A stretch of DNA of 64,000 nt, from contig NZ_JODM01000020.1 in assembly GCF_000717995.1 (NCBI RefSeq), forward strand, positions 62,001 to 126,000, written 5' to 3'. Shown here one piece after another: positions 15,052-63,316 of this stretch; position 1 is the stretch's first letter; each line of letters starts with the position of its first letter. The translations under genes were made by a program, and so were the position numbers. The DNA is from Streptomyces violaceorubidus. Lineage in GTDB: Bacteria; Actinomycetota; Actinomycetes; Streptomycetales; Streptomycetaceae. The notes under the pieces were generated by a model, which did no database searches, was not told where the DNA came from, and saw nothing but the letters and a program-made list of their open reading frames with translations.

Positions 15052-15100
15052 CTCGGCGCGCCACGCTCAGCGCGCCACGTTCAGCGCGCCACGCTCAGCG
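15052..15100. repeat. 14-bp tandem repeat x3.5 crossing the egtD stop codon
   Basis: CTCAGCGCGCCACG and close variants repeat from 15052 to 15100. The unit crosses the egtD stop at 15081-15083, so the last six codons of egtD (SLSVAR) are the innermost copy. Likely slippage duplication of the gene's 3' end into the spacer. Confidence 0.85.
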
Positions 15101-16052
15101 ACAGGGCGAAACGGCCCTCGCCGTCCGTCCACCAGTGGGCCAGGTCGAGCCCGGCCGCCGCCAGCTCGGCCCGCACGCCCTCCCGCCGGAACTTCGCGGA
15201 CACCTCGGTGCGCAGCTCCTCCCCGTCCGCGAAGTCCACCGCCAGGTCGAGCGCCTGGACCTTGACGGTCTGCGCGGTGCGCGAGCGCAGCCGCATCTCG
15301 ATCCACTCCCGCTCGGCGTTCCAGAGCGCCACGTGCTCGAAGGCCTCGGGCGCGAAGTCCGCCTCCAGCTCCCGGTTGACCACCGACAGCACGTTCTTGT
15401 TGAACTCGGCCGTCACCCCGGCCGCGTCGTCGTACGCCCGGACCAGCACCCCCTCGTCCTTGACCAGGTCCGTGCCCAGCAACAGCGTGTCGCCCGGCGA
15501 GAGAAGGGCGCGCACGGAGGCCAGGAACCCGGCGCGTTCCTCGGGCAGCAGGTTGCCGACGGTGCCGCCGAGGAACGCCACCAGGCGGGGTCCCGGTGTG
15601 TCGGGCAGCGTCAGCCCGGCGGTGAAGTCGGCGATCAGCGCGTGCACCTGGAGGCCGGGACGCTCGGCGACCAGCGCCTGCCCGGCCAGGGTGAGGGCGC
15701 TCTCGCTCACGTCGACCGGCACGTAGCCGCGCAGGCCGGTCCGCTCGGTGAGCGCGTCGAGCAGCACGCGCGTCTTCTCCGAGGAGCCGGAGCCCAGCTC
15801 GACCAGGGTGCGGGCGCCGGTCGCCGCCGCGATCTCCCCGGCCCGGTCGACGAGGATCTCCCGCTCGGCCCGGGTCGGGTAGTACTCGGGCAGCGCGGTG
15901 ATCTCCTCGAACAGCTCGCTGCCCCGCGCGTCGTAGAACCACTTCGGCGGCAGCCACTTGGGCGTGCTCGTCAGGCCCGCCCGGACGTCGGCGCGCAGGG
16001 CGGCGTCCGTGGCGTCCTCGGGCAGCGTCCGGGTCAGACGGAACTGGCTCAC
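15081..16052 (-). CDS. egtD: L-histidine N-alpha-methyltransferase, ergothioneine synthesis
   Basis: 323 residues, the usual EgtD length. PKWLPPKWFYDARGSELFEE is the family hallmark near the N-terminus; LVELGSGSSEKTRVLLDAL is the SAM loop, and YYPTRAEREIL and FNKNVLSVVNREL line the histidine site. It trimethylates histidine to hercynine using three SAM. The GTG start at 16052 overlaps the egtC stop (GTGA), so it is translationally coupled as the last gene of egtABCD. Confidence 0.96.
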   Translation of the reverse strand: MSQFRLTRTLPEDATDAALRADVRAGLTSTPKWLPPKWFYDARGSELFEEITALPEYYPTRAEREILVDRAGEIAAATGARTLVELGSGSSEKTRVLLDALTERTGLRGYVPVDVSESALTLAGQALVAERPGLQVHALIADFTAGLTLPDTPGPRLVAFLGGTVGNLLPEERAGFLASVRALLSPGDTLLLGTDLVKDEGVLVRAYDDAAGVTAEFNKNVLSVVNRELEADFAPEAFEHVALWNAEREWIEMRLRSRTAQTVKVQALDLAVDFADGEELRTEVSAKFRREGVRAELAAAGLDLAHWWTDGEGRFALSLSVAR

Positions 16053-16849
16053 GTGCGGGACTCCTTCACAGAGGCGAAAGCGTCTGCCGGGGCGGTGTCG
16101 CCCGGGACCTTGAGCGGGGTGAGCCGCACGTCCGTGCCGCTCGCCACGAGCAGGGAGCGGTCGGGGACCTCCTGCCAGCTCGGGTCGTCGTCGTAGGGCT
16201 CCGAGGCGACGACCGTGCCGCCGCCCGGGCGGGACAGGTACCACAGGGTGTCGCCCCAGGTGGTGGCGGTGACGGTGGAGCCGTTGGTCAGGAGCAGGTT
16301 GAGCCGGGAGGCGGGTGCCGCCCCGGCGACCTCCAGCACCGTCTCGGCCAGCGCCCGGCCCTCGTCGTCCCCGGCGCGCAGCCGCGCCAGGACCAGCGCC
16401 CACACGAGCGCCGAGTCGTTGCGCGCCTCCAGCGACAGCAGCTCACCGGGCGGCAGCGTCGCGGCCACCGGGGCGAGCGAGTCGGGCCAGCCCGCCACGG
16501 CGCCGTTGTGGCTGAACAGCCAGGCCCCCGCGGCGAACGGCGCGGCGGCCGCCTCGGCGTCGGCGCCCGCCAGCGTCGCGTCCCTGACGGCGCCCAGGAG
16601 CGCGCCGGTGCGCACCACCCGGGCCAGGTCGGCGAAGGACTGGTCCGCCCAGATCGGCCCCGCCCGCCGGTAGCGGGCCGGTACCGGGTCGCCCTCGGCG
16701 TACCAGCCGACGCCGAAGCCGTCGGCGTTGACCGTGCCGTACCGCTGGTGCCGCGGCGCCCAGGACTGGCGGTACAGACCGTGCGGCGGCGCCACGACGA
16801 GCGCGCCGAGCGGCTCCGGGGGGCCCACATAGGCCAGGTGACGGCACAT
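16049..16849 (-). CDS. egtC: Ergothioneine pathway amidohydrolase (class II glutamine amidotransferase fold)
   Basis: 266 residues. MCRHLAYVGPPEPLGALV exposes Cys2 as the N-terminal nucleophile of class II amidotransferases, and NADGFGVGWYAEG and FSHNGAVAGW supply the rest of the glutaminase site. EgtC removes the glutamyl group from the gamma-glutamyl-cysteinyl-hercynine sulfoxide. Both ends overlap neighbours by four bases (ATGA with egtB, GTGA with egtD). Confidence 0.95.
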   Translation of the reverse strand: MCRHLAYVGPPEPLGALVVAPPHGLYRQSWAPRHQRYGTVNADGFGVGWYAEGDPVPARYRRAGPIWADQSFADLARVVRTGALLGAVRDATLAGADAEAAAAPFAAGAWLFSHNGAVAGWPDSLAPVAATLPPGELLSLEARNDSALVWALVLARLRAGDDEGRALAETVLEVAGAAPASRLNLLLTNGSTVTATTWGDTLWYLSRPGGGTVVASEPYDDDPSWQEVPDRSLLVASGTDVRLTPLKVPGDTAPADAFASVKESRT

Positions 16850-18204
16850 CAGGCGACCTCCGCCGACCGGGCCGTGCGGAACCCGGAGAAGATCTGCCGC
16901 CGGATCGGGTAGTCCCAGTTGCGGAACGTCCCCCGGCAGGCCACCGCGTCCACGGCGAAGGAACCGCCGCGCAGCACCTTGTACTCCGGGCCGAAGAACA
17001 CCTCCGAGTACTCCCGGTACGGGAACGCCCTGAAGCCCGGGTACGGGGCGAAGTCGCTCGACGTCCACTCCCAGACGTCGCCGATCAACTGCCTCACGCC
17101 GAGCGGCGACTCACCGGCCGGGTAGCTGCCCGCGGGAGCCGGGCGCAGGTGCCGCTGCCCGAGGTTGGCGTGCTCCGGGCCCGGGTCGGCGTCGCCCCAC
17201 GGATAGCGCATGACCCGGTCGCCGGCCGGGTCGTACCGCGCGGCCTTCTCCCACTCGGCCTCGGTCGGCAGCCGGCGCCCGGCCCAGCGGGCGTACGCGT
17301 CGGCCTCGTACCAGCACACGTGCAGCACCGGCTCGTCGGCCGGCACCGCCTCGGTCACCCCGAAGCGGCGCCGCAGCCACTGCCCGCCGTCCCGGCGCCA
17401 GAACAGCGGAGCGGTGAGGGAGTGCTTGCGGACGTGCTCCCAGCCCTCGGGGGTCCACCAGCGCGGGTCGTCGTAGCCGCCGTCCTCGATGAAGGCCCGG
17501 TAGGCGCCGTTGGTCACCGGGACGGTGTCGATGAAGTACGGCGCGACCTCGCGCCGGTGCGCGGGCCGTTCGTTGTCCAGGGCCCAGGGCTCGGTCGACG
17601 TGCCCATGGTGAACGGACCGCCCGGCACCAGGACTTCCGCCGGTCCGGTGAACAGCGGCACCGGGTCCGGGTCGGGCGCGGTCAGGGCCTGCGGGCCCCT
17701 GCGCAGCTGGTGCGTGATCAGCATGGTCTCGTCGTGCTGCTGCTCGTGCTGGGCGATCATCCCGAAGGCGAAGCCCGCCTCGGTCAGCCGCGTCCCGTCG
17801 AACGCGGTGCGCTCCAGCACGTCCAGGGCCCGCCCGCGCACGTCCGCCGCGTACCGGCGGGCCTCGGCGGGCGACAGCAGCGGCAGGCTCGGCCGCTCGG
17901 AGCGGGGATGCTCGAAGGCGTCGTAGAGGCTGTCGATCTCCGGGCGTATCGCCTCCTGCCCGGCGACCGCGCGCAGCAGCCACTGCTCCTCCTGGTTGCC
18001 GATGTGCGCGAGGTCCCACACCAGCGGGGACATCAGCGGCGACACCTGGGCGGTCAGGTCGGGGCCCTCCACGCAGCTGGTCAGCAGCGTGGTGCGCTCG
18101 CGGGCCGTGATCAGTGTGGTCAGCGCCCGCTCCCGCAGCCGCTCGGCGTCCACGGCCCCTTCGCCGGAGGTGGCGGCGGCGGTGTGGTCGGTGGGGTGGT
18201 TCAT
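16849..18204 (-). CDS. egtB: Iron-dependent sulfoxide synthase, ergothioneine synthesis
   Basis: 451 residues. An N-terminal DinB-like domain carries the iron ligands: His67 in DLAHIGNQEEQ, and HEQQHDE (His153, His157) forming the HX3HXE motif. The C-terminal half is the formylglycine-generating-enzyme-like domain (VPGGPFTMGTSTEPWALDNE, YEADAYARWAGRRLPTEAEW, DVWEWTSSDF, VLRGGSF). It joins gamma-glutamylcysteine and hercynine with O2 to give a sulfoxide. ATGA overlaps on both sides place it inside egtABCD. Confidence 0.96.
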   Translation of the reverse strand: MNHPTDHTAAATSGEGAVDAERLRERALTTLITARERTTLLTSCVEGPDLTAQVSPLMSPLVWDLAHIGNQEEQWLLRAVAGQEAIRPEIDSLYDAFEHPRSERPSLPLLSPAEARRYAADVRGRALDVLERTAFDGTRLTEAGFAFGMIAQHEQQHDETMLITHQLRRGPQALTAPDPDPVPLFTGPAEVLVPGGPFTMGTSTEPWALDNERPAHRREVAPYFIDTVPVTNGAYRAFIEDGGYDDPRWWTPEGWEHVRKHSLTAPLFWRRDGGQWLRRRFGVTEAVPADEPVLHVCWYEADAYARWAGRRLPTEAEWEKAARYDPAGDRVMRYPWGDADPGPEHANLGQRHLRPAPAGSYPAGESPLGVRQLIGDVWEWTSSDFAPYPGFRAFPYREYSEVFFGPEYKVLRGGSFAVDAVACRGTFRNWDYPIRRQIFSGFRTARSAEVA

Positions 18205-19502
18205 GAGCGGGTCTCCCTCCCGTGCGGGCCACGGTCCGGCCCGCCCGGCATGTCCAGCAGATCGTCGGCGGGGCAGCGGCCCCTGAGCACGTAGCGCTCC
18301 CGGTAGGCGGCGACGGCGTCCGTCACCTCGGTGCCCGCGCCGAGCCGGGGCAGCGCGGCGAGCGCCGCCGTGAAGCAGATGACGGCCGCCTCGCGCAGCT
18401 CGGGGTCGGTCAGCGCGGCACGGGCCGCGTCCTCGTACAGCGGGTTGTGCGGCGCGGGCAGGCCGAGCGTGCGTTCGGCCAGGGGCTTGACGGCCCGATA
18501 GGCGGTCTCGGTGGCCTCCGGGTCGTCGAACAGCGCGGCGGTCACCGCCAGCGGCACGATCCAGCCGTCGTCCCCGGGCTGCGCGTCGATCATGCGCAGC
18601 TCCAGGTGGCCGCGCGGTCTGACCGGCGGGAAGAGCGTGGTGAGGTGGTAGTCCAGGTCCTCCCGGGTCGGCGGCCGGGGCACCATTTCACGGGTCCACT
18701 CCCGCAGGGTCAGGCCCTCCGGCACGTCCCAGGGGCCGCCGTCGCGGCGCACGCACATCACCGGGGCGTCCAGCACGTGCCGGGCCCAGGTACGGCGCGG
18801 GTCGCTGTCCAGCGGGGGACCGCCCGCCCGGCCGGCACCGATCTGCGTCCACCGCAGCTGCCGGGTGGACCGCCAGCCGGTGGGGCGCCCGCCGGACAGC
18901 GGGGAGTTGGCGAACGCGGCCAGCAGGACCGCGCCCAGGTGATGGGCCAGCCACCACCGGCGGACGTGTCCCAGCGGGCCCGGCTCCTCGTGCCCGGCGT
19001 CCACGCACACCTGCACCGAGGCGGAGGCGCACATCATGAAGCGCCCGCCGGGGCCGGAGCGGTCGAGACAGGCCTCCATGGCGTCGTAGCGCGGCTGCCG
19101 CAGGTAGCGGCGCGGCGCCTGCCAGGGATCGTGGCCGAGGCCGACCAGGGCGAGGCCGTCCTCGCGCAGTACGGCGCGGACGGCGTCGAGGTCGGCGGAG
19201 ACGGAGCGGACGCACTCCGTCAGGGAGGCGGCGGGGAGCGAACTCAGCTCCAGCTGACCGCCGGGCTCGACGGTCAGCGCCGACCTCAGGGGCACGGCCC
19301 GCAGCGCGGTGTACGCCGCACGGAGCCGTTCGGGTGACACGGGGAGCCGCGGCTCGCGCAGCTCGTGGACCAGCCATTCCACCTCGACGCCGAGGAGCCT
19401 GGGCGGGCCGGTCTTGAAGCAGATGCCGCGGACCAGCGCCTCGACCTCGGCCTCATTGACGGCGGTACGTGGCCGGATACAGCCACCAACCGAATCGGAC
19501 AT
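18201..19502 (-). CDS. egtA: Glutamate-cysteine ligase, ergothioneine synthesis
   Basis: 433 residues. LLGVEVEWLVHEL and EPGGQLELSSLP are the metal/ATP-binding strands of the GCS2 family; HLELRMIDAQPGDD is another conserved acidic stretch. EgtA makes gamma-glutamylcysteine for EgtB. ATG 19502 has a near-perfect Shine-Dalgarno (AGGAGGA) and starts the four-gene operon. A GC-rich hairpin lies in its leader. Confidence 0.93.
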   Translation of the reverse strand: MSDSVGGCIRPRTAVNEAEVEALVRGICFKTGPPRLLGVEVEWLVHELREPRLPVSPERLRAAYTALRAVPLRSALTVEPGGQLELSSLPAASLTECVRSVSADLDAVRAVLREDGLALVGLGHDPWQAPRRYLRQPRYDAMEACLDRSGPGGRFMMCASASVQVCVDAGHEEPGPLGHVRRWWLAHHLGAVLLAAFANSPLSGGRPTGWRSTRQLRWTQIGAGRAGGPPLDSDPRRTWARHVLDAPVMCVRRDGGPWDVPEGLTLREWTREMVPRPPTREDLDYHLTTLFPPVRPRGHLELRMIDAQPGDDGWIVPLAVTAALFDDPEATETAYRAVKPLAERTLGLPAPHNPLYEDAARAALTDPELREAAVICFTAALAALPRLGAGTEVTDAVAAYRERYVLRGRCPADDLLDMPGGPDRGPHGRETRS

Positions 19503-54722: not shown

Positions 54723-54751
54723 TGATCTCTGCCCGACCCATGCGTTCGCTT

Positions 54752-54800
54752 CGCCGGACGCCGGACGCCGGACGCCGGACGCCGGACGCCGGACGCCGGA
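54752..54800. repeat. Tandem heptamer CGCCGGA x7
   Basis: Seven perfect copies of CGCCGGA from 54752 to 54800, followed by one degenerate copy (TGTCCGA) and CGCCGG. It lies between the MMPL promoter and the 3' end of the MFS exporter gene. Confidence 0.95.
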
Positions 54801-54838
54801 TGTCCGACGCCGGTCGGCCGACCCGGCGCCCTGTCCGC

Positions 54839-56125
54839 CTACGCCGTCCTGTCGCCGCGCCCTCGTGCGACGGAGAAGGTGCGGGCGCCGGGCGCCAGGG
54901 CGGCGGTGGCGGGCGCCGCGAAGCAGACGAGCGCGCAGGCCGCGAGGACCGCCGTGGCGCCGAAGGCGTCGATGGCCGGGGCGATGAGGGCGAGGCCGAG
55001 CGGGGCGAGGCCGTAGGACAACAGGAAGTCCAGGGAGGAGACACGGGCCAGTTTGTCCGGAGCGACCTCGCGCTGGGCGGCGGTGAACCAGGGCACGTTG
55101 AAGAGTTCGACGCCGATGCCCGCGACGGCGTAGGCGGCCGGCACGACGACCGGGTGCACGGGGAACACCAGGCTGAGCGGGGCGAAGCCGTAGCAGGCCA
55201 GCCCGGCGAGAGCGGCCCGGCCGGGGGAGCGCGGGCGCCAGCGGGCCATGAGCAGCGCACCGCCCAGTGCTCCCGCGGTGTAGGCGGTCATCGCAGCCGC
55301 CAGCACGACCTCGGTCCCGTACTCGTCCCTGCTGACCAGGGGAAGGGCGACGCCGGTCGCGGAGTAGCCGGTGGCTATCACGGCCGTCAGCGCGCCCAGG
55401 CCGGCGAGGAACCAGGGGTGCCTGCGCGCCTCGCGGACCCCCTCCGCGAACTCGGCCGGGAAGGACGCCCTGACCGCCCCGGCCGAAGGCTCCGAGGTCG
55501 CTTCCGCGGTCCCGGGCCGGGTGCCGGTCGGGGGTACACAGGCCGCGACCAGCCAGAGCAGCCCGATGCCCACCAGCAGTGCCCTGGTGTCCAGGAAGAC
55601 GGCGAGCAGAGCGGCCGACGAGGGGCCGACGAGCGTGGTGACCCGGACCGCCAGGGTCATGGCGGCGTTGGCCTGCTGCCTGCGCCCGGCGTCGACCACT
55701 TCGGCGGTGAGGGCCTGGTAGGCGGGTCGGCAGGCGCCCTGCCCGGCGCCCGCCACCGCGGCGGCCGCCGCCATCAGCGGCACGGAGCGCTCCAGTCCCG
55801 CGGCGATCACCGGTGCGGCGGCTCCGGCGGCCAGCCCCGCCCACAGCACGACGCCCCGGCGGGAGTGCCGGTCGGCCAGCACCCCGGCCACGGGCACCGC
55901 GGCGAGGAACCCGACGGTACGCGCCGCGAGCAGCAGGCCGAGGTCGGCGGCGGTCAGGGTCCGGCCGAAGACGGCGAGGCCGAGGACGAAGGGCAGGGCC
56001 CAGGTGGCCAGGCCCGACGCGGTGGCGCCGGTCCACAGGCGCAGGAAGGCCAGGTCGAGCAGGATCGAGGGCTGCTTCGCCGGAGGGGACTCGGCGGCGG
56101 TGGGAAGGGCGGAGGGAGTGGGCAC
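54839..56125 (-). CDS. MFS exporter, EntS-like, divergent from the metallophore-type operon
   Basis: 428 residues, about 12 membrane spans. LDLAFLRLWTGATASGLATW, VAGVLADRHSRRGVVLWAGL and GAGQGACRPAYQALTAEVVD match the DHA3/EntS group that exports enterobactin and related siderophores. GTG 56125 is chosen because GGACAGGAG precedes it at nine bases and the conserved region begins soon after; GTG 56254 would run through the shared promoter. It faces the FecCD permease gene across 202 bases with a Zur-like box. Role inferred: secretion of the metallophore made by the operon. Confidence 0.85.
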   Translation of the reverse strand: MPTPSALPTAAESPPAKQPSILLDLAFLRLWTGATASGLATWALPFVLGLAVFGRTLTAADLGLLLAARTVGFLAAVPVAGVLADRHSRRGVVLWAGLAAGAAAPVIAAGLERSVPLMAAAAAVAGAGQGACRPAYQALTAEVVDAGRRQQANAAMTLAVRVTTLVGPSSAALLAVFLDTRALLVGIGLLWLVAACVPPTGTRPGTAEATSEPSAGAVRASFPAEFAEGVREARRHPWFLAGLGALTAVIATGYSATGVALPLVSRDEYGTEVVLAAAMTAYTAGALGGALLMARWRPRSPGRAALAGLACYGFAPLSLVFPVHPVVVPAAYAVAGIGVELFNVPWFTAAQREVAPDKLARVSSLDFLLSYGLAPLGLALIAPAIDAFGATAVLAACALVCFAAPATAALAPGARTFSVARGRGDRTA

Positions 56126-56264
56126 GAGGGAGTGCTCCTGTCCTGTCGGCGGCGAGGGGTCGGGACGCGTACCGGCGGCAACGGCTGTGTACTGCACGGA
56201 AGTTGTGCGGCGGGACCGGCCTGGTGGCACGGCGGGCAGCGCGATGCGGCTCACACTATCGCAG

Positions 56265-56279
56265 TGATAATCATTTCCA
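56265..56279. promoter_or_regulatory. Zur/FurB-like box in the exporter/importer divergent promoter
   Basis: TGATAAT-C-ATTTCCA, followed by TTA, resembles the actinobacterial Zur (FurB) consensus, recalled as TGAAAATCATTTTCATTA and TGAAAATGATTTTCA. Half-sites TGATAAT and TGGAAAT agree at five of seven bases. It does not match the DmdR iron box TTAGGTTAGGCTCACCTAA. It lies 48 bases upstream of the permease start and 140 upstream of the exporter start. TAGAGT just after it may be a -10. Confidence 0.6.
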
Positions 56280-56327
56280 TTAGAGTGCTACCGGTCGTCG
56301 TCCTGCGAGGGGTGTTGGGTTCCATAC

Positions 56328-57431
56328 ATGAACATGATTTCCATTGACGAGGTGGTGACGCCACGGCCCGAAGCCGCCGTGCGAGGCCGGTCCGCGTCCC
56401 TCAAAGCACTGCTGCTCGGCTGCACGGCGCTGGTCGCCCTCCTGCTCGTGTCCGTCGTCGTCGCCATCGGGCTCGGTCCCGCCGTCGTCACCCCGGGGGA
56501 GACCGCCCGCCATCTGTGGGCCGCTCTCAGCGGCGGGCGCATCGCTCCCGATGAGGTGACGACGTATCAGATCGTCTGGCAGATCCGCACGCCGCGCGTG
56601 CTGCTGGCGGCGCTGGTGGGTGCCGGGCTGAGCGCGGTCGGAGTGGCGATCCAGGCCATGGTGCGCAACGCGCTGGCCGACCCCTTCGTCCTCGGGGTCT
56701 CCTCGGGCGCGTCCGTGGGCGCCGTCGGGGTCACCGTCACCGGAGGGCTCGCGGTACTCGGCGTCCACGCCGTCTCCGTCGGCGCGTTCGCCGGCGCGCT
56801 CGTCGCCTCGCTGCTGGTGTACGCGGCCTCCTCCCGCAGGGGCGCGCTGTCACCGCTGCGCCTCGTGCTGACGGGCGTGGCCCTGTCGCTGGGATTTCAG
56901 GCTGTCATGAGCCTGATTGTCTACTTCGTGCCGGACGGCGAGGCGACGAGCACGGTCCTGTACTGGACCATGGGCAGCTTCGGTGCGGCGACCTGGGGCG
57001 CGTTGCCCGTCGTCTGCGTCGTGGTGCTGGCCGGACTCGCGGTCCTGTACCGGTACGGGAGGGCACTGGACGTCCTCTCCCTCGGCGACGAGACCGCCGC
57101 CAGCCTCGGCTTCGACCCCGACCGCCACCGCAAGGTGCTGCTGATGCTCGTCTCACTCGTCACGGGCGTCATGGTCGCCGTCAGCGGCGCCATCGCCTTC
57201 GTCGGACTCGTCATGCCGCACCTGGTGCGGATGGTCGCCGGGGCCACGCACGCGCGTCTGCTCGCCGTGGCCCCCCTGGTCGGAGCGATCTTCATGGTGT
57301 GGGTCGACCTGGCGGCACGGACCCTGGTGGCCCCGCGCGAGCTGCCACTCGGGGTCATCACCGCGCTCGTGGGGGTGCCCGTCTTCATCGCCCTCATGCG
57401 GCGCAGGGGCTACACCTTCGGACGGCGCTGA
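56328..57431 (+). CDS. FecCD-family ABC permease (metal-chelate importer)
   Basis: 367 residues with about ten membrane spans. IVWQIRTPRVLLAALVGAGL, AIQAMVRNALADPFVLGVSS, SGAIAFVGLVMPHLVRMVAG and PRELPLGVITALVGVPVFIA are the FecCD/BtuC signatures; the GLVMPHLVR stretch is the coupling helix to the ATPase. A single permease gene implies a homodimer as in BtuC. It starts the operon, 48 bases after the Zur-like box, and ends one base before the ATPase start codon region. Imports a siderophore-like chelate or cobalamin; regulation favours a zinc or other metal chelate. Confidence 0.93.
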   Translation: MNMISIDEVVTPRPEAAVRGRSASLKALLLGCTALVALLLVSVVVAIGLGPAVVTPGETARHLWAALSGGRIAPDEVTTYQIVWQIRTPRVLLAALVGAGLSAVGVAIQAMVRNALADPFVLGVSSGASVGAVGVTVTGGLAVLGVHAVSVGAFAGALVASLLVYAASSRRGALSPLRLVLTGVALSLGFQAVMSLIVYFVPDGEATSTVLYWTMGSFGAATWGALPVVCVVVLAGLAVLYRYGRALDVLSLGDETAASLGFDPDRHRKVLLMLVSLVTGVMVAVSGAIAFVGLVMPHLVRMVAGATHARLLAVAPLVGAIFMVWVDLAARTLVAPRELPLGVITALVGVPVFIALMRRRGYTFGRR

Positions 57432-57432
57432 C

Positions 57433-58206
57433 GTGGACCTGGAACTCGATGAACTCACCGTGGTGACGGACGGCCGGAGCCTCGTGCGCGGGCTGTCGCT
57501 CCAGGTGCCGGACGGAAAGGTCGTGGGGCTCGTCGGGCCCAACGGAAGCGGCAAGTCCACCGCCCTGCGGTGCGTGTACCGGGCGCTGCGGCCCAGTTCC
57601 GGAACGGTCAGGGTGGGTGAGCGGGACCTGACGCGCCTCCCGCTGCGCGACAGCGCCCGCACCGTCGCGGCCATGACCCAGGACGGCGGCGTCGACTTCG
57701 ACTTCACGGTCGAGGAGGTCGTCGCCCTCGGCCGCGCGCCCCACCTGCGCGGGAACCAGGCGCTCAGCGGCCGCGAACGCGCCCTGTGCGAACGGGTGAT
57801 GGACCGGCTCGACATCGGACACCTCGCGCACCGGGGCGTTCTCACACTGTCGGGCGGTGAGCGCCAGCGCGTCCTGCTGGCCCGCGCGCTCGTACAGGAA
57901 CCGCAGATCCTCGTCCTCGACGAGCCGACCAACCACCTGGACGTCCGCCACCAGGTCGACCTGCTCTCGCTCCTGAGCGGGTCCGGACTCACCGTCCTCG
58001 TCGTCCTGCACGACCTCAACCTCGCCGCGGCGGCCTGCGACCGGCTCGGCGTCCTCTCCCAAGGCCGCCTGGTCGCCTCCGGCACACCCGAAGCCGTGCT
58101 CACCCCACAGCTCGTCGGTGACGTCTTCGGTGTCACGGCCAGCGTCGTCCCCCACCCGCTGACCGGCGATCCCCAACTCCTGTACTCGCTCGACTCCGCC
58201 CGATGA
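57433..58206 (+). CDS. FecE-like ABC transporter ATPase
   Basis: 257 residues. Walker A GPNGSGKST (35-43), Q-loop MTQDGG, signature LSGGERQR (139-146), Walker B ILVLDEPT (159-166) and the switch His in VVLHDLNLAAAAC are all intact. It powers the FecCD permease. GTG start one base after the permease stop; its TGA overlaps the ATG of the binding protein, so the three transporter parts are translationally coupled. Confidence 0.95.
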   Translation: MDLELDELTVVTDGRSLVRGLSLQVPDGKVVGLVGPNGSGKSTALRCVYRALRPSSGTVRVGERDLTRLPLRDSARTVAAMTQDGGVDFDFTVEEVVALGRAPHLRGNQALSGRERALCERVMDRLDIGHLAHRGVLTLSGGERQRVLLARALVQEPQILVLDEPTNHLDVRHQVDLLSLLSGSGLTVLVVLHDLNLAAAACDRLGVLSQGRLVASGTPEAVLTPQLVGDVFGVTASVVPHPLTGDPQLLYSLDSAR

Positions 58207-59231
58207 AAGGCTGCTCACGCATGCGTACCACCCCCATTCCCGGCACGGCCCGCCGGCCTGTCGCGCTCGGCTCGGCCCTGGCGGCGGCCCTGGTGCTCGG
58301 CGGATGCGGCGCCGAGGTCGAACCGGACGCCAAGAAGTCCGGCACGGTCACCGTCAAACGCTGCGGCGAACCCGTCGAGTACACGGTGCCCGAGCGGGCC
58401 GTCGCCTATGAGGGCGGCAGCGCGGACAAGCTGTTCGCCCTCGGTCTGACGGAGCACGTGCACGGCTATGTGATGCCTCCCGCCAACCCGCCGGTGACCG
58501 AATCCCCGTGGGCGTCCGAGTACGCCAAGGTGAAGATGCTCTCCGACGACCTCCTGAACAAGGAGGTCGTGGTCGAGGCCGAGTCCGATCTCGTCGTGGC
58601 CGGTTGGAACTCCGGTTTCAAGGACGAGCGGGGCATCACACCCGAGATCCTGGACAAGCTCGGCATCCAGAGCTTCATGCACACCGAGAGCTGCTTCAAC
58701 TACCCGGGCCACCCCGAGCGGATGAGCCCCTTCGAGGCCCTCTACACCGACCTCGAACGGCTGGGCGAGATCTTCCGGGTCGAGGACAGGGCCGCGGACG
58801 TCGTCGACGGGTTGAAGAAGCGCGTGGCGGAGGTCGGGAGCAAGGCCCCGACGGGCGATCCGGTGCCCGTCTTCCTCTACGACTCCGGCACCGACCAGCC
58901 GTTCACCGCGGGCAACCAGGTGCCCCCCAACGACATCATCAGGACGGCGGGCGGCAGGAACGTCTTCGACGGCCTCGACGAGCGCTGGACCCAGGTCAAC
59001 TGGGAATCCGTCGCCGAGGCCGAGCCCGAGGTCGTCGTCATCCTCGACTACGGCGACCAGCCCGCCCAGAAGAAGATCGACTTCCTGCGGAAGTCCGCCC
59101 ACACCAAGGGGCTGCCCGCCGTGAGGAAGAACAACTTCTTCGTCCTCGACTACAACGAGGGCATCAGCGGGCCCCGCAACATCGACGGCCTGGAGAAGTT
59201 CGCCACCTACCTGCGCGAACTCGAGGGCTGA
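58203..59231 (+). CDS. Metal-chelate-binding lipoprotein (FecB/TroA-like fold)
   Basis: 342 residues. An Arg-containing N-region, a hydrophobic stretch and the lipobox VLGGC (Cys35) mark a lipoprotein. AVAYEGGSADKLFALGLTEH, PFEALYTDLERLGEIF and WTQVNWESVAEAEPEVVVIL match class III solute-binding proteins for siderophores, haem and cobalamin. ATG 58203 overlaps the ATPase stop; ATG 58221 (MRTTPIPG) is a plausible alternative start. A pair of Cys at CFNYPG and KRCGEP could form a disulfide. Ligand unknown, likely the product of the following genes. Confidence 0.9.
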   Translation: MKGCSRMRTTPIPGTARRPVALGSALAAALVLGGCGAEVEPDAKKSGTVTVKRCGEPVEYTVPERAVAYEGGSADKLFALGLTEHVHGYVMPPANPPVTESPWASEYAKVKMLSDDLLNKEVVVEAESDLVVAGWNSGFKDERGITPEILDKLGIQSFMHTESCFNYPGHPERMSPFEALYTDLERLGEIFRVEDRAADVVDGLKKRVAEVGSKAPTGDPVPVFLYDSGTDQPFTAGNQVPPNDIIRTAGGRNVFDGLDERWTQVNWESVAEAEPEVVVILDYGDQPAQKKIDFLRKSAHTKGLPAVRKNNFFVLDYNEGISGPRNIDGLEKFATYLRELEG

Positions 59232-59275
59232 GCCACCGCGTGCCACCCCCGCCGTACCGACCAGGAAAGGACACC

Positions 59276-60028
59276 ATGGACCTTCACGCGATCGGCCAGG
59301 CCCTCGTCGAGCAGCTGCCCCCACCGCTGCCCGCCGACCGGATCATCGCCCTCAACCAGCCCAAGGCGGACGTGCACACCACGCGTTCCTACGAGTGGAA
59401 CGGCTGGACGTTCGACGTCCCACCCGGCGTCTTCATACCCGGCTGGACCAGCCGCCTGATCCACGAGCGGGTGCTCGACGGCCGTATCGAGACCCGAAAC
59501 CTGCGCTACGCCGCCATGGGCGCGGGCCTGGGCGTCGAGGCCGTAGCGGCGGGCGTCCGGGGGGCACGGGAGATCCACGCGCTCGACATCCACCCGCAGA
59601 GCGTGGCCGCCGCCACCGGTCACTACCGCCGCCTGGTGGGCGAGCGCCCGGGCACCACGTTCGCCCCGGCGGTGAGCGACGTCTTCGACGCCCTCCCCGA
59701 GGGTGTCCGGCTGGACGTGGTCACCTTCAACCCGCCCGCCGTCAGCCAGACCGTCAGTGAGGACCCCGACGTCGTACGCAACGTCTGCGTGGGAGCGCCG
59801 CTGCTGGCGAAGTTCTTCGCCCAGATCGCGGAGAAGGACCTGCTGGCCCCCGGCGGCGAGATCCACCTCATCGCCTCCAACACCGCGGATCTGCGCGCCC
59901 TGGTCCGGCACGCGCTGGACCACGGGCTCAGCCCTCGGATCGACCACCTCCACGACTGGCGGGACGGCGTGCTGACCTTCCTCTTCCGCATCACCCATGA
60001 CACGCCGTGCACCGGAGGAGAGCGATGA
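59276..60028 (+). CDS. Class I SAM-dependent methyltransferase, HemK-like NPP motif
   Basis: 250 residues. AAMGAGLGVEAVAAG (80-92) is the SAM loop, IHALDIHPQSVAAA the acidic motif II, and VVTFNPPAVSQT (NPP at 152-154) the motif of methyltransferases acting on planar nitrogens such as PrmC/HemK. It is not PrmC, because its N-terminus (VHTTRSYEWNGWTFDVPPGV) and its operon differ. AGGAAAGG precedes ATG 59276; its TGA overlaps the DUF364 ATG. In this operon it may N-methylate the metallophore or an intermediate (inference). Confidence 0.8.
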   Translation: MDLHAIGQALVEQLPPPLPADRIIALNQPKADVHTTRSYEWNGWTFDVPPGVFIPGWTSRLIHERVLDGRIETRNLRYAAMGAGLGVEAVAAGVRGAREIHALDIHPQSVAAATGHYRRLVGERPGTTFAPAVSDVFDALPEGVRLDVVTFNPPAVSQTVSEDPDVVRNVCVGAPLLAKFFAQIAEKDLLAPGGEIHLIASNTADLRALVRHALDHGLSPRIDHLHDWRDGVLTFLFRITHDTPCTGGER

Positions 60029-60834
60029 AGCCCACCGCGGAACTCCTGGCCGCCGTCCTGGCGGGCGATCACGGCCCCCGCCCCACCGACCTCGTGGCCA
60101 CCAGCGTGTTCTGGGTGCACCACGGCACCCGGCTGGCCGGCGGGAACACCACCTACCTCAACCAGTACGTCCTCGTCCGACTGGGCGACTCCTTCGGCGG
60201 CTGCGCCTTCGAGGCCGGCGAGGTCGATCCGTCCGTGTGCCGCGACGCCTCCGGTGCCGCCCTGGACACGCTGCTGGGCGACGTGCCCCGTCCCCTGCGG
60301 ATCGCCGCTCTCGACGCCTACCTCAGCTCGGTCCGCCCGCACCGGGAGGCGGCCGAGGCCGAACCGGTCACCCTGCCCGCCGGGACGCCCGAGACCCGGG
60401 CACTGGCCCGGGACGCGGCCATCGCCGGACTCCTCGACATCGACGCCGGGGCCAAGGTCGCCCTGATCGGGGTGGTCAACCCGCTCGTCGCCGCGATCCG
60501 TGAGCGCGGCGGTGATCCCCTGCTCTGCGACCTCAACCTGCGCACCACCCAGTGGGGCGATCCGGTCACCGACGACATGCACGAGGTCCTCGACACCGCC
60601 GACGCCGTCGTGGCCACCGGAATGACCCTCGGCAACGGCAGCTTCGACACCGTCCTCGCCCGCTGTCGCGAACGCGGTGTGCCCCTGGTGGTCTACGCCC
60701 AGACCGGCAGCGCCGTGGCGCGAGCCTTCCTCGGACAGGGCGTGACCGCCCTGTCCGCGGAACCCTTCCCCTTCTCCCAGTTCAGCGCCGAACCCACCAC
60801 CCTGTACCGCTACCGGGTGGCGGCCGGCGCATGA
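60025..60834 (+). CDS. DUF364 (putative heavy-metal chelation) protein with DUF4213-like N-terminus
   Basis: 269 residues. The N-terminal half (DLVATSVFWVHHGTRLAGGN, TYLNQYVLVRLGDSFGGCAF) resembles the DUF4213 enolase-N-like domain. The C-terminal half (VALIGVVNPLVAAIRERGG, DAVVATGMTLGNGSFDTVLA, GVPLVVYAQTGSAVARAFLG) is the Rossmann-like DUF364. This family is described as a putative heavy-metal-chelation domain, with no proven activity. Both ends overlap neighbours (ATGA). It could be an enzyme of metallophore assembly or a metal-releasing protein; neither is proven. Confidence 0.85.
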   Translation: MKPTAELLAAVLAGDHGPRPTDLVATSVFWVHHGTRLAGGNTTYLNQYVLVRLGDSFGGCAFEAGEVDPSVCRDASGAALDTLLGDVPRPLRIAALDAYLSSVRPHREAAEAEPVTLPAGTPETRALARDAAIAGLLDIDAGAKVALIGVVNPLVAAIRERGGDPLLCDLNLRTTQWGDPVTDDMHEVLDTADAVVATGMTLGNGSFDTVLARCRERGVPLVVYAQTGSAVARAFLGQGVTALSAEPFPFSQFSAEPTTLYRYRVAAGA

Positions 60835-61835
60835 CCGCCACCACCCGCCCGTCCGAGGCCGCCGCCCCCGGCACGGAGGGCACCGGACGCGCCGCCTGCC
60901 ACCACGGCGAGATCCTGCAGGGCGTCTTCCTCGACGAGCGGTGCCGCCCCGTCCACGGGCTGGTCACGCTGCCGATGAACGGACCGGGCAGCACCGCCCG
61001 GTTCGCGCACCGGCCCGGCAGCCCGCCGGACGAGGTGACGGTGACACCCGCCGGCCGGACCAAGGCGCGGGCGGCGGCCGTCCTCGCCGTACGGGAGTGC
61101 GCGGCACGCCGGGACGCGAAGCCCTGCGGCGGGGACCTGACCCTCGCCGGTGACCTCCCCGTCGGCCTCGGAATGGGTTCCTCCACCAGCGACGTCATCG
61201 CCACCGTGCGGGCGGTCGCCGACTCCTGGGGGGTGGGGCTGCCCTCGGAGACGATCGCCCGGATCGCGGTGCGCGCCGAGGGCGCCAGCGACCCCCTGAT
61301 GCACGGCGTGCGCCCCCTGCTCTTCGCGCAGCGCGAGGGCCGTGTCCTCGAAGTGCTCGGCCCCGCACTGCCACCCGCCGTGGTGGTCGGGTGCACCCTC
61401 GCCCAGGGCGCACCGGTCGACACCCTCGCCCTCCCCGCCCTCCACCACGACGACGACCTCACCGCCTACGCGCAGCTGCGCGGCATGCTCCGCCGCGCGG
61501 TGACCACCGCCGACACCGCCCTGCTCGGCCGGGTCAGCACCTCCAGTGCCCGCCTGCGCCAACGCGTCCTGCGCCACCAGGAGTTCCCCACCCTCACCGC
61601 CATCGCCGACCGCGCGGGCGCCGTCGGCGTGCAGATCGCCCACAGCGGAAACGTCGCCGGCATCCTCTTCGACCCCCGTGCCCCCGGCCTGCACCCCGCC
61701 CTGCGCCGGTGCGCCCGTGCCCTGGACCGCGCGGGCATCACACCGACCCGGACCTTCACCACCTTCGCGTCCCCCCTCAGCGAGGAGTTCCCGTGGACGA
61801 ACACATCTCGGACGCCATCGGCCGTCCGGACCTGA
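60831..61835 (+). CDS. GHMP-family kinase, PduX (L-threonine kinase)-like
   Basis: 334 residues. ACHHGEILQGVFLDERCRPV resembles the GxxGELxQG opening of PduX/BluE threonine kinases, and LPVGLGMGSSTSDVIATV (109-126) is the GHMP ATP loop. GVQIAHSGNVAGILFDPR is the C-terminal motif 3. These enzymes phosphorylate a small amino acid (threonine, by analogy serine or homoserine) on the hydroxyl. ATG 60831 overlaps the DUF364 stop, and its 3' end overlaps the PLP gene by 43 bases. In this context it probably makes the phospho-amino-acid that the PLP enzyme consumes. Confidence 0.85.
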   Translation: MTATTRPSEAAAPGTEGTGRAACHHGEILQGVFLDERCRPVHGLVTLPMNGPGSTARFAHRPGSPPDEVTVTPAGRTKARAAAVLAVRECAARRDAKPCGGDLTLAGDLPVGLGMGSSTSDVIATVRAVADSWGVGLPSETIARIAVRAEGASDPLMHGVRPLLFAQREGRVLEVLGPALPPAVVVGCTLAQGAPVDTLALPALHHDDDLTAYAQLRGMLRRAVTTADTALLGRVSTSSARLRQRVLRHQEFPTLTAIADRAGAVGVQIAHSGNVAGILFDPRAPGLHPALRRCARALDRAGITPTRTFTTFASPLSEEFPWTNTSRTPSAVRT

Positions 61836-62944
61836 TACGCCTCGACGACGGCCTGCTGTGTCTCCGCTTCGAGACCATGAAGGTCGTCTCCGCCCTCGCC
61901 GCCGTACGCCACCTGCTCGACACCGGAGCCGTACGACGCGGAGACACACTCATCGACAGTTCCAGCGGCATCTACGCCTACGCCCTCGCCCTGGCCTGCC
62001 ACCGCTACGGCCTGCGCTGCCACATCGTCGGCTCCACCACCGTCGACCACACCCTGCGCACCCAGCTCGGCATACTCGGCGCCCACCTGGAGCAGATGCC
62101 GCCCAGCAGCAGCCTCCAACTCGACCAGAACCGCCGGGTCGCCCGCGTCCGCGAGATCCTGCGCGAACATCCCGGCTACCACTGGATGCGCCAGTACCAC
62201 GACGACATCCACTACCTCGGCTACGAAGCCGTCGCCGAGCGGATACACGACCGGACGGACGGCGACTGCCTCACCCTCGTCGGCGGGGTGGGCTCCGGCG
62301 CCTCGACCGGCGCCCTCACCCACTACCTGAGGAAACGCTCCGCCGACGTACGACTCGTGGGTGTCCAGCCGTACGGGAGTGTCACCTTCGGCAGCGAGCA
62401 CGTCGCCGACCCGGAGATCATCATCGCCGGCATCGGCAGCTCCATCCCCTTCGGCAACGTCCGCCACGACCTCTACGACGTCCTGCACTGGCTTGCCTTC
62501 GACGCCGCCCTCGCCGGCAGCGTCGACCTGCTGCGCCGGCACGCCGTCTTCGCGGGCCTGTCGACCGGGGCTGCCTACCTCGCGGCCCGGTGGGAACGTC
62601 GTGCGGAGCCCGGCCGGACGGTGCTGTTCATCGCCGCGGACACCGGCCACCGATACGTCGACACCGTGTTCGCCCGGCACGGCGAGGCCGCCCGGATCGA
62701 ATCCCTGGCACCCCGGCCGGTAGACGGCGGGGACGAACTGGCCCTCCCGTGGTCACGGATGAGCTGGAACGGGTCGCCCGCACCGCAGGGAGCGGTCGCC
62801 GGACAGAGCGCCACAGCGACGTGGCGCCACGTCGGGAAGGCCCCCGGACTCGGCGCTCCCCGCGGCACGGCGACGGACCCCTCGGCGCGGGACACCGTCC
62901 GGCATCGGCAGGTGTCCCGCAAGGAGAATCACAACGAGGGGTGA
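61793..62944 (+). CDS. PLP-dependent cysteine synthase/SbnA-like (fold type II) enzyme
   Basis: 383 residues from GTG 61793 (RBS GAGGAG). LRFETMKVVSALAAV aligns with the KLExxNPxGSVKDR block of O-acetylserine sulfhydrylases with a four-residue deletion, leaving Lys30 as the probable Schiff-base lysine. DSSSGIYAYALALAC (55-69) replaces the SSGNTG loop; GGVGSGASTGA (164-174) binds phosphate; AGIGSSIPFGN and FAGLSTGAAYLAA finish the fold. Residues after about 310 form a low-complexity tail, longer than relatives, perhaps from loss of the original stop. Likely replaces the phosphate of a phospho-amino acid with an amine nucleophile, as SbnA does. Confidence 0.82.
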   Translation: MDEHISDAIGRPDLIRLDDGLLCLRFETMKVVSALAAVRHLLDTGAVRRGDTLIDSSSGIYAYALALACHRYGLRCHIVGSTTVDHTLRTQLGILGAHLEQMPPSSSLQLDQNRRVARVREILREHPGYHWMRQYHDDIHYLGYEAVAERIHDRTDGDCLTLVGGVGSGASTGALTHYLRKRSADVRLVGVQPYGSVTFGSEHVADPEIIIAGIGSSIPFGNVRHDLYDVLHWLAFDAALAGSVDLLRRHAVFAGLSTGAAYLAARWERRAEPGRTVLFIAADTGHRYVDTVFARHGEAARIESLAPRPVDGGDELALPWSRMSWNGSPAPQGAVAGQSATATWRHVGKAPGLGAPRGTATDPSARDTVRHRQVSRKENHNEG

Positions 62945-63316
62945 CACTGTTATGAGTGCCGTGGGGAGCGCGGCGGGTGTGCCCCGGACGCCGATCGAAC
63001 CCCCGCGAACCGGCGTCCGGGGCACCTGTTCGTTCGCCGATCGACCCGCACACTGGCAGGGGCCGCCCGGATCGGCATGTGCAACGTGCTGAAGCGGTGA
63101 TGATGCGGTCCAGACATGGCAGACCGCGGACACACGGACGCACGGACCATGTGACAAGGGTGCGGTGTCGGGCGGCTCCGGGAGAGGACTGCGTCACAAC
63201 GAGACAGTAACCGTGCGACGGCGGGAGACGTCACACGCATCTTCCCGATCCCGGGGCTGTGATGCCCGGGGCCACCTGAACACCCAGCTCCTGTCCGCCG
63301 AGGACGGACGGGCCGC
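62945..63316. other. 372-base non-coding region after the metallophore-type operon
   Basis: Contains the operon's terminator. A 46-codon frame from ATG 62953 spans the terminator stem and is probably chance. The rest (63030-63316) shows no recognisable gene or structure. Confidence 0.55.
62979..63025 (+). terminator. Intrinsic terminator of the metallophore-type operon
   Basis: GTGCCCCGGACGCCG (62979-62993) pairs perfectly with CGGCGTCCGGGGCAC (63011-63025), a 15-bp stem with a 17-base loop, 35 bases after the PLP gene stop; CTGTTCGTT follows. Confidence 0.85.

What the first reader, a model, noticed from the sequence alone, without database searches (positions are those of the whole stretch)
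54839..63025. Candidate undescribed metal-regulated metallophore system (exporter, importer, and four unusual biosynthetic genes)
Seen: an MFS exporter diverges from seven genes, six of them joined by overlaps or a 1-base gap, encoding FecCD permease, ATPase, binding lipoprotein, SAM methyltransferase, DUF364, PduX-like GHMP kinase and SbnA-like PLP enzyme. A Zur-like box lies between the divergent units and a strong terminator at the end. Known: SbnA uses O-phosphoserine to build 2,3-diaminopropionate in staphyloferrin B; EntS-type MFS proteins export siderophores; FecCD importers take them back; the [S,S]-EDDS zincophore of Amycolatopsis is reported as Zur-regulated and non-NRPS. Inference: the kinase makes a phospho-amino acid, the PLP enzyme replaces the phosphate with an amine, the methyltransferase and DUF364 protein tailor or metallate the product. 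No NRPS or NIS synthetase is present, so the product would be a small opine- or EDDS-like chelator by a new enzyme set.
Basis: partly seen in the sequence, partly recalled or inferred. Interest (0 to 1): 0.95.

Follow-up and report, generated by a model that had tools for sequence, protein, structure and literature searches.

The report
Predicted zinc-scavenging molecule gene cluster
Streptomyces and related soil bacteria share a gene cluster, carrying matches to the DNA site of the zinc repressor Zur, that is predicted to make, export and re-import a small zinc-binding molecule with a set of enzymes that would be new for this job.

The parts
54839..56125 (-). MFS transporter, predicted exporter; start GTG at 56125 chosen by the gene caller
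   Evidence: PF07690 110.7 bits; present in 61 of 61 full-context loci
56265..56279 (.). Zur-like box 1, TGATAATCATTTCCA, 10 of 11 consensus positions
   Evidence: consensus from PMC5472717 passages; conserved in related gaps
56328..57431 (+). FecCD-type permease of the predicted chelate importer
   Evidence: PF01032 299 bits
56329..56343 (.). Zur-like box 2, TGAACATGATTTCCA, 10 of 11, overlapping the permease start codon
   Evidence: the in-frame start-codon overlap is kept in only 2 of 30 window-type permeases
57433..58206 (+). ABC ATPase of the importer
   Evidence: PF00005 113 bits
58203..59231 (+). Substrate-binding lipoprotein (start 58203 or 58221)
   Evidence: PF01497 87.9 bits; closest solved chains are periplasmic binding proteins 4mlz and 4n01
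59276..60028 (+). Class I methyltransferase, NPPA motif; optional tailoring enzyme
   Evidence: PF05175 borderline; present in 23 of 61 loci; weak profile match to 1wy7
60025..60834 (+). DUF364 protein, predicted core biosynthetic enzyme
60831..61835 (+). GHMP kinase, predicted to phosphorylate a hydroxy amino acid
61793..62944 (+). SbnA-like fold-type-II PLP enzyme; catalytic lysine K30
   Evidence: Best solved match SbnA, 152 bits; K30, R115, Q134, Y135 invariant in 109 of 109
62979..63025 (.). Perfect 15-bp inverted repeat, likely transcription terminator without T run

Best explanation
This conserved cluster is predicted to be a zinc-starvation (Zur-repressed) zincophore system, in which a kinase and an SbnA-like PLP enzyme likely build an aminopolycarboxylate-type chelator that the MFS protein would export and the FecCD system would bring back with zinc. 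Step by step: zinc-loaded Zur likely sits on the two boxes and silences both divergent units (inferred from motif and conservation). When zinc runs out, the GHMP kinase likely phosphorylates the hydroxyl of serine or threonine (inferred). The PLP enzyme likely eliminates the phosphate to an aminoacrylate on Lys30 and adds the amine of a second amino acid (inferred from its SbnA/CmnB-like active site). The argininosuccinate-lyase-like gene that accompanies some other kinase-PLP pairs is missing from this cluster (shown), so the conjugate is probably kept rather than cleaved to a free diamino acid. DUF364 likely acts on that conjugate, and the methyltransferase, where present, would cap it (both inferred). 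The substrate and second amino acid are unknown.
For: Zur: two 10/11 boxes; 16 motif sites in 7.65 Mb against 0 for the control, two of them here; of the other 14 sites I opened nine: three lie at znuACB-zur, rpmG2 and zitB, one before a Dpp-type importer, one before an NRPS gene, four at no metal gene; 59 of 62 MFS promoter gaps at 9/11 or better against 28 of 463 control gaps; no iron-type box in the gap (best 9 of 19, the background level). System: MFS, DUF364, kinase, PLP in 61 of 61 full-context loci, FecCD permease in 58; core protein distances correlate 0.83-0.90. Chemistry: PLP profile best matches SbnA then CmnB; SbnA Lys47, Arg132, Gln151, Tyr152 fall on K30, R115, Q134, Y135, invariant in 109 of 109 (Arg132, Tyr152 and Ser185 named as phosphoserine-selecting in PMC12414870, passages); kinase next to PLP in 8 of 8 annotated regions opened. 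DUF364: fold and pairing with the PLP family. Precedent: aspergillomarasmine synthase condenses O-phosphoserine and aspartate to a metal chelator without free Dap (PMC12751119, passages).
Against: No expression, binding or metabolite data for this cluster. Five of the 16 motif sites were not opened and four opened ones look like chance. The genome has five FUR-family genes, so another regulator could read the box. The related loci are not independent, and 28 of 463 control gaps also reach 9/11; three MFS gaps reach only 8. SbnA's third selecting residue Ser185 is Gly167 here, about ten residues before the lysine are missing, and the SbnA equivalog cut-off is not met (135.5 against 349.95 bits). 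Three of 61 loci show no FecCD permease nearby, and one of the 58 (L075) is only 35% identical. FecCD importers are usually described for iron complexes. Kinase specificity is open. I had no SbnB sequence to search with, so an SbnB-like partner was not excluded systematically.
Confidence: 0.68

Rival explanations
1. The cluster makes a chelator for another metal (iron, cobalt, nickel or copper), under another FUR-family regulator whose site resembles the Zur box.
For: FecCD importers are common for ferric siderophores; five FUR-family genes in the genome; the PLP enzyme is closest to one from an iron siderophore pathway.
Against: The same motif lies at znuACB-zur, rpmG2 and zitB in this genome; no iron-type box in the gap (that consensus was recalled).
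Confidence: 0.13
2. The enzymes make a small amino acid or antibiotic-like metabolite that is not a chelator; the transporters handle the product or a different substrate.
For: Kinase-PLP pairs also sit beside NRPS genes and argH-like genes.
Against: A FecCD importer accompanies 58 of 61 loci and Zur-like boxes accompany the exporter gap; no argH-like gene inside 70 type A/B loci examined.
Confidence: 0.09
3. Zur-controlled but not a secreted zincophore: DUF364 and the binding protein handle zinc inside or at the cell, and the metabolite is an intracellular zinc buffer.
For: Pfam calls DUF364 'putative heavy-metal chelation'; zinc-type regulation.
Against: An MFS exporter is part of 61 of 61 loci; the DUF364 structure paper argues for an enzyme (PMC2954201, passages).
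Confidence: 0.08
4. Corrinoid salvage or nucleotide-loop assembly, with a PduX-like kinase and a BtuC-like permease.
For: PduX-like naming of two kinase relatives; BtuC models score the permease at about 218 bits, below cut-off.
Against: The PLP protein is a PALP/SbnA-type enzyme, not a decarboxylase of the CobD kind (CobD recalled); no cob genes seen in the lists read by eye; Zur boxes.
Confidence: 0.02

Closest known systems
[S,S]-EDDS zincophore of Amycolatopsis japonicum (aes genes)
   Different: I could not read the aes gene list (paper not held), so shared enzymes are untested. No kinase-DUF364 pairing is described in the passages I saw.
SbnA of staphyloferrin B and CmnB of capreomycin
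   Same: Closest solved PLP enzymes; lysine, Arg132 and Tyr152 equivalents kept; PMC12414870 passages.
   Different: Ser185 is glycine, about ten residues shorter before the lysine, SbnA equivalog cut-off not met; the kinase here is GHMP-type; no NIS synthetase seen.
Aspergillomarasmine (AMA synthase)
   Same: A cysteine-synthase-like enzyme joins O-phosphoserine and an amino acid into a metal chelator without releasing Dap (PMC12751119, passages).
   Different: Fungal; no DUF364, kinase or FecCD importer is mentioned in the passages seen.
2,3-Diaminobutyrate modules (dabA, dabB, dabC of friulimicin)
   Same: dab genes are listed in a friulimicin-like cluster together with cysteine-synthase and argininosuccinate-cleaving functions (PMC11117518, passage); a threonine-kinase role for DabC is recalled. 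Kinase + PLP + argH-like sets were found in L179, L189, L191 and L206.
   Different: No argH-like gene in this cluster; DUF364, MFS and FecCD genes instead, plus Zur-like boxes.
Zur-regulated SCO0472-SCO0476 genes of S. coelicolor
   Same: SCO0475 is induced by EDTA and vancomycin, an orthologue of SCO0476 in S. roseosporus too, and a Zur site overlaps the SCO0476 start codon as box 2 does here (PMC4726154 and PMC10320115).
   Different: Orthology not verified: no S. coelicolor sequence was fetched, and the start-codon overlap is kept in only 2 of 30 window-type permeases.
DUF364 structures 3l5o (Desulfitobacterium) and 3npg (Pyrococcus)
   Different: Only 14-19% identical; pairing with an SbnA-like PLP enzyme is not mentioned in the passages seen.

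Membership tests
DUF364 (PF04016) | Pfam gathering score | tested here: met
   46.1 bits against 23
DUF364 (PF04016) | Enolase-N-like plus Rossmann-like two-domain fold | tested here: met
SbnA-type phosphoserine beta-replacement enzyme | PLP lysine and phosphoserine-selecting Arg132 and Tyr152 equivalents | tested here: met
   K30, R115, Y135 in 109 of 109; residue roles from PMC12414870 passages
SbnA-type phosphoserine beta-replacement enzyme | Ser185 equivalent | tested here: not met
   Gly167 in 109 of 109
SbnA-type phosphoserine beta-replacement enzyme | NCBIfam SbnA equivalog cut-off (TIGR03945) | tested here: not met
   135.5 bits against 349.95
PduX L-threonine kinase | GHMP-kinase fold and domain | tested here: met
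PduX L-threonine kinase | Sequence relation to PduX and threonine specificity | not tested
   No PduX sequence was compared; only source names point to it
Zur regulon of Streptomyces | Zur box in the promoter region | tested here: met
   Two 10/11 boxes; 59 of 62 related gaps at 9/11 or better, controls 28 of 463
Zur regulon of Streptomyces | Zinc-dependent repression by Zur | not testable with these tools
   Needs expression data
Metallophore biosynthesis-transport cluster | Biosynthetic enzymes with exporter and importer | tested here: met
   Core genes 61 of 61, FecCD permease 58 of 61
Metallophore biosynthesis-transport cluster | Metal-chelating product | not testable with these tools
   Needs metabolite analysis
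EDDS-type aminopolycarboxylic metallophore cluster | aes biosynthetic genes | not tested
   aes sequences and the primary paper were not available
2,3-Diaminobutyrate (dab) module | Argininosuccinate-lyase-like partner gene | tested here: not met
   0 of 70 type A/B loci inside the cluster; one weak hit about 6 kb away in L076

The most novel reading that the evidence does not exclude
A widespread, undescribed class of actinobacterial zincophore whose core biosynthetic enzyme is a DUF364 protein: a GHMP kinase and an SbnA-like enzyme make an amino-acid conjugate that DUF364 turns into the chelator, giving a first reaction to a family known only from structures. The same DUF364-PLP pair, with an L-amino-acid ligase, a dipeptide epimerase and a Dpp-type importer, drives a second, sister class of metallophore, and some species keep only the receptor to steal the zinc complex.
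Probability: 0.4. Interest if true: 0.87.

Novelty: new variant of a known kind. Interest (0 to 1): 0.72.

Why it matters
If right, a conserved zinc-acquisition system lies unrecognised in many Streptomyces relatives: DUF364 of the close type (67% identity or more) is in 46 of 394 sampled genomes of the family (my count of the listing). It would give DUF364, whose structure was published in 2010 with only a proposed role, a concrete substrate class to test, add a route to zincophores without NRPS or NIS synthetase, and supply a marker set (DUF364 next to this PLP family, plus a Zur box) for genome mining. New biodegradable zinc chelators are of practical interest, as EDDS and aspergillomarasmine show.

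Tried and rejected
Corrinoid salvage was considered and set aside: the PLP enzyme is of the wrong kind and I saw no cob genes in the lists read by eye (no systematic search). The 'F420-0 transporter' label (TIGR03868, TIGR03869, TIGR03873) was dropped because all three scores lie below cut-off. I hoped that the Zur box overlapping the permease start codon, reported for SCO0476, would prove orthology; only 2 of 30 window-type permeases keep it in frame, so it does not. The last protein search, with the permease, named no S. coelicolor protein among the 120 rows listed of 1877. Paper searches found no description of this enzyme set: DUF364 with siderophore (2 papers, neither on this cluster); GHMP kinase with metallophore and cysteine synthase (0); broader searches, where I saw listings and chosen passages only. 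The library lacks most subscription journals, so this does not prove that the cluster is not in print. PHROGs gave no match for DUF364, methyltransferase and kinase. Kinase specificity could not be read from the fold: homoserine, mevalonate and related kinases tie. The looser Zur pattern with one mismatch gave 98 sites against 9 for the control, many of them coding-like, so the stricter pattern was used. Neither PduX nor SbnB was compared, because no sequence of either was at hand.
Full report
What is there. The window belongs to a Streptomyces-like genome (G000, contig C20); the closest named relatives of the kinase and the permease, both 98% identical, are from Streptomyces violaceorubidus. 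Gene positions were checked by ORF listing, sequence reading and a codon-usage gene caller. The cluster is an MFS exporter and, divergently, FecCD permease, ATPase, binding lipoprotein, methyltransferase, DUF364, GHMP kinase and PLP enzyme. Pfam assigns each protein above cut-off except the methyltransferase, which is borderline. A perfect 15-bp inverted repeat closes the row, without a T run. I saw no NRPS or NIS synthetase among the called genes of the window, judging by eye from the first 70 residues.

Conservation. A scan of public genomes with the PLP protein gave 253 relatives, of which the best 80 were kept as loci. Of these, 61 are longer than 20.5 kb and count as full context; the other 19 are cut short. 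In all 61 the MFS, DUF364, kinase and PLP genes are present; a FecCD permease match is present in 58 (19 of the window type, 39 of a second type, usually about 45% identical; one of the 39, L075, only 35%); the methyltransferase in 23. Pairwise distances of the four core proteins correlate at 0.83 to 0.90. Hosts named include Streptomyces, Amycolatopsis, Nocardiopsis, Saccharopolyspora, Pseudonocardia, Actinopolyspora and Thermocrispum. In 394 genomes of the family, 122 have a DUF364 match; by my count of that listing 46 are of the close type (67% identity or more) and the other 76 are at 38-47%.

DUF364 and the PLP enzyme. In a class-wide sample of 394 genomes, 32 have a DUF364 match; two of these are weak partial hits near 3e-4 and were dropped. 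The other 30 are all below 1e-50, and all 30 carry a relative of this PLP enzyme on the same contig within about 3 kb: 21 of 21 of the close type, with PLP identity 57% or more, and 9 of 9 of the distant type, with PLP identity about 31-35%. The reverse does not hold: four genomes have a close PLP enzyme (59-62%) but no DUF364, and there an ATP-grasp ligase lies beside it (the ligase family was tested in one of them, L173).

Zinc control. The Zur consensus of S. coelicolor, tGaNNatSatNNtCa, comes from PMC5472717 (passages). The window gap has two sites with 10 of its 11 set positions. A stricter AT-rich form with up to two mismatches has 16 sites in the genome, 0 for the reversed pattern. Two are here. 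Of the other 14 I opened nine: one lies at the start of a ZnuA gene followed by genes read as znuC, znuB and a FUR-family gene (L158; ZnuA and FUR tested); one precedes a ribosomal protein L33 gene with an L31-like gene and a ZigA/MRF-like GTPase behind it (L160; L33 and GTPase tested); one precedes a ZitB-like CDF exporter (L162); one a Dpp-type binding protein (L157); one an NRPS-like gene (L166, by eye). The remaining four opened sites show no metal gene and look like chance; five sites were not opened. In related loci, 59 of 62 MFS-divergent gaps reach 9 of 11 or better and three reach 8, against 28 of 463 control gaps at 9 or better; these loci are related, so the gaps are not independent. 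The window gap has no iron-type box (best 9 of 19, the background level). The genome has five FUR-family genes, so Zur is the likeliest but not the only candidate. Independent hints come from S. coelicolor: SCO0475 is one of six Zur-regulated genes raised about 10- to 100-fold by EDTA and vancomycin (PMC4726154, first part of the text and a figure legend), and a Zur site lies on the SCO0476 start codon (PMC10320115, figure legend). I could not verify that these are orthologues.

Variants. A second importer arrangement, type B (L111-L117, seven loci), keeps MFS, PLP, DUF364 and window-type FecCD genes with a more distant kinase in most of them and Zur-like boxes. Types C and D are told under Noticed in passing. 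Of 199 sampled relatives, 14 besides the window's genome carry a window-type binding protein (66% or more); 11 of these also have DUF364 (69% or more), three do not and may be receptor-only.

Verdict. Known kind, new variant: the parts are recognisable, but I found no described cluster with this set in the searches named. Main gaps: no expression data, no product, unknown second amino acid, unknown DUF364 reaction.

Noticed in passing
L118-L129 and L180; also L207 and L208: Type C cluster: L-amino-acid ligase (ATP-grasp), DUF364 (41-45%), PLP (31-35%), dipeptide-epimerase-like enzyme, MFS, methyltransferase, Dpp-type importer (families tested in L118; annotated in L207, L208). DUF364 and PLP adjacent in 12 of 12 of L118-L129. 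A Zur-like site of 9/11 or better lies in a gap near the ligase in 10 of 13. Looks like a sister metallophore class.
   Followed up: partly
L171-L174, L186: Type D: an ATP-grasp ligase takes the place of DUF364 beside a 58-62% PLP enzyme, with a kinase and FecCD genes in L173 and L186; no Zur-like site above 8/11 in the gaps scanned.
   Followed up: partly
G830 (L196), G777 (L202), G423 (L200): Genomes with the window-type importer but no DUF364 match: possible receptor-only strains. L196 and L202 have Zur-like sites upstream of the permease (9/11 and 10/11), L200 has none near it. In L202 the importer lies beside another set: LysA-like decarboxylase, PALP-rhodanese, SufS-like enzyme, methyltransferase and TauD dioxygenase.
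   Followed up: partly
G000:C2:12400-20400 (L157): A second Zur-like site in the window's own genome (TGAAAACGATTTTCA) precedes a Dpp-type binding protein, with permease-like and MFS-like genes behind it and a GNAT gene in front: resembles the transport half of type C, though the genome has only one DUF364 match, the window's.
   Followed up: partly
L187, L189, L190 (plasmids of Mesorhizobium, Azospirillum, Bosea): Kinase plus cysteine-synthase-like pairs on alphaproteobacterial plasmids, two of them near a threonine synthase gene and one with ATP-grasp and argH-like genes; function unknown.
   Followed up: no
window 54738-54828: Head-to-tail CGCCGGA repeats just downstream of the MFS gene, between it and the neighbouring transporter gene.
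   Followed up: no
window 15081-19502: Four genes that by eye look like an ergothioneine set (egtD, egtC, egtB, egtA); names recalled, not tested.
   Followed up: no
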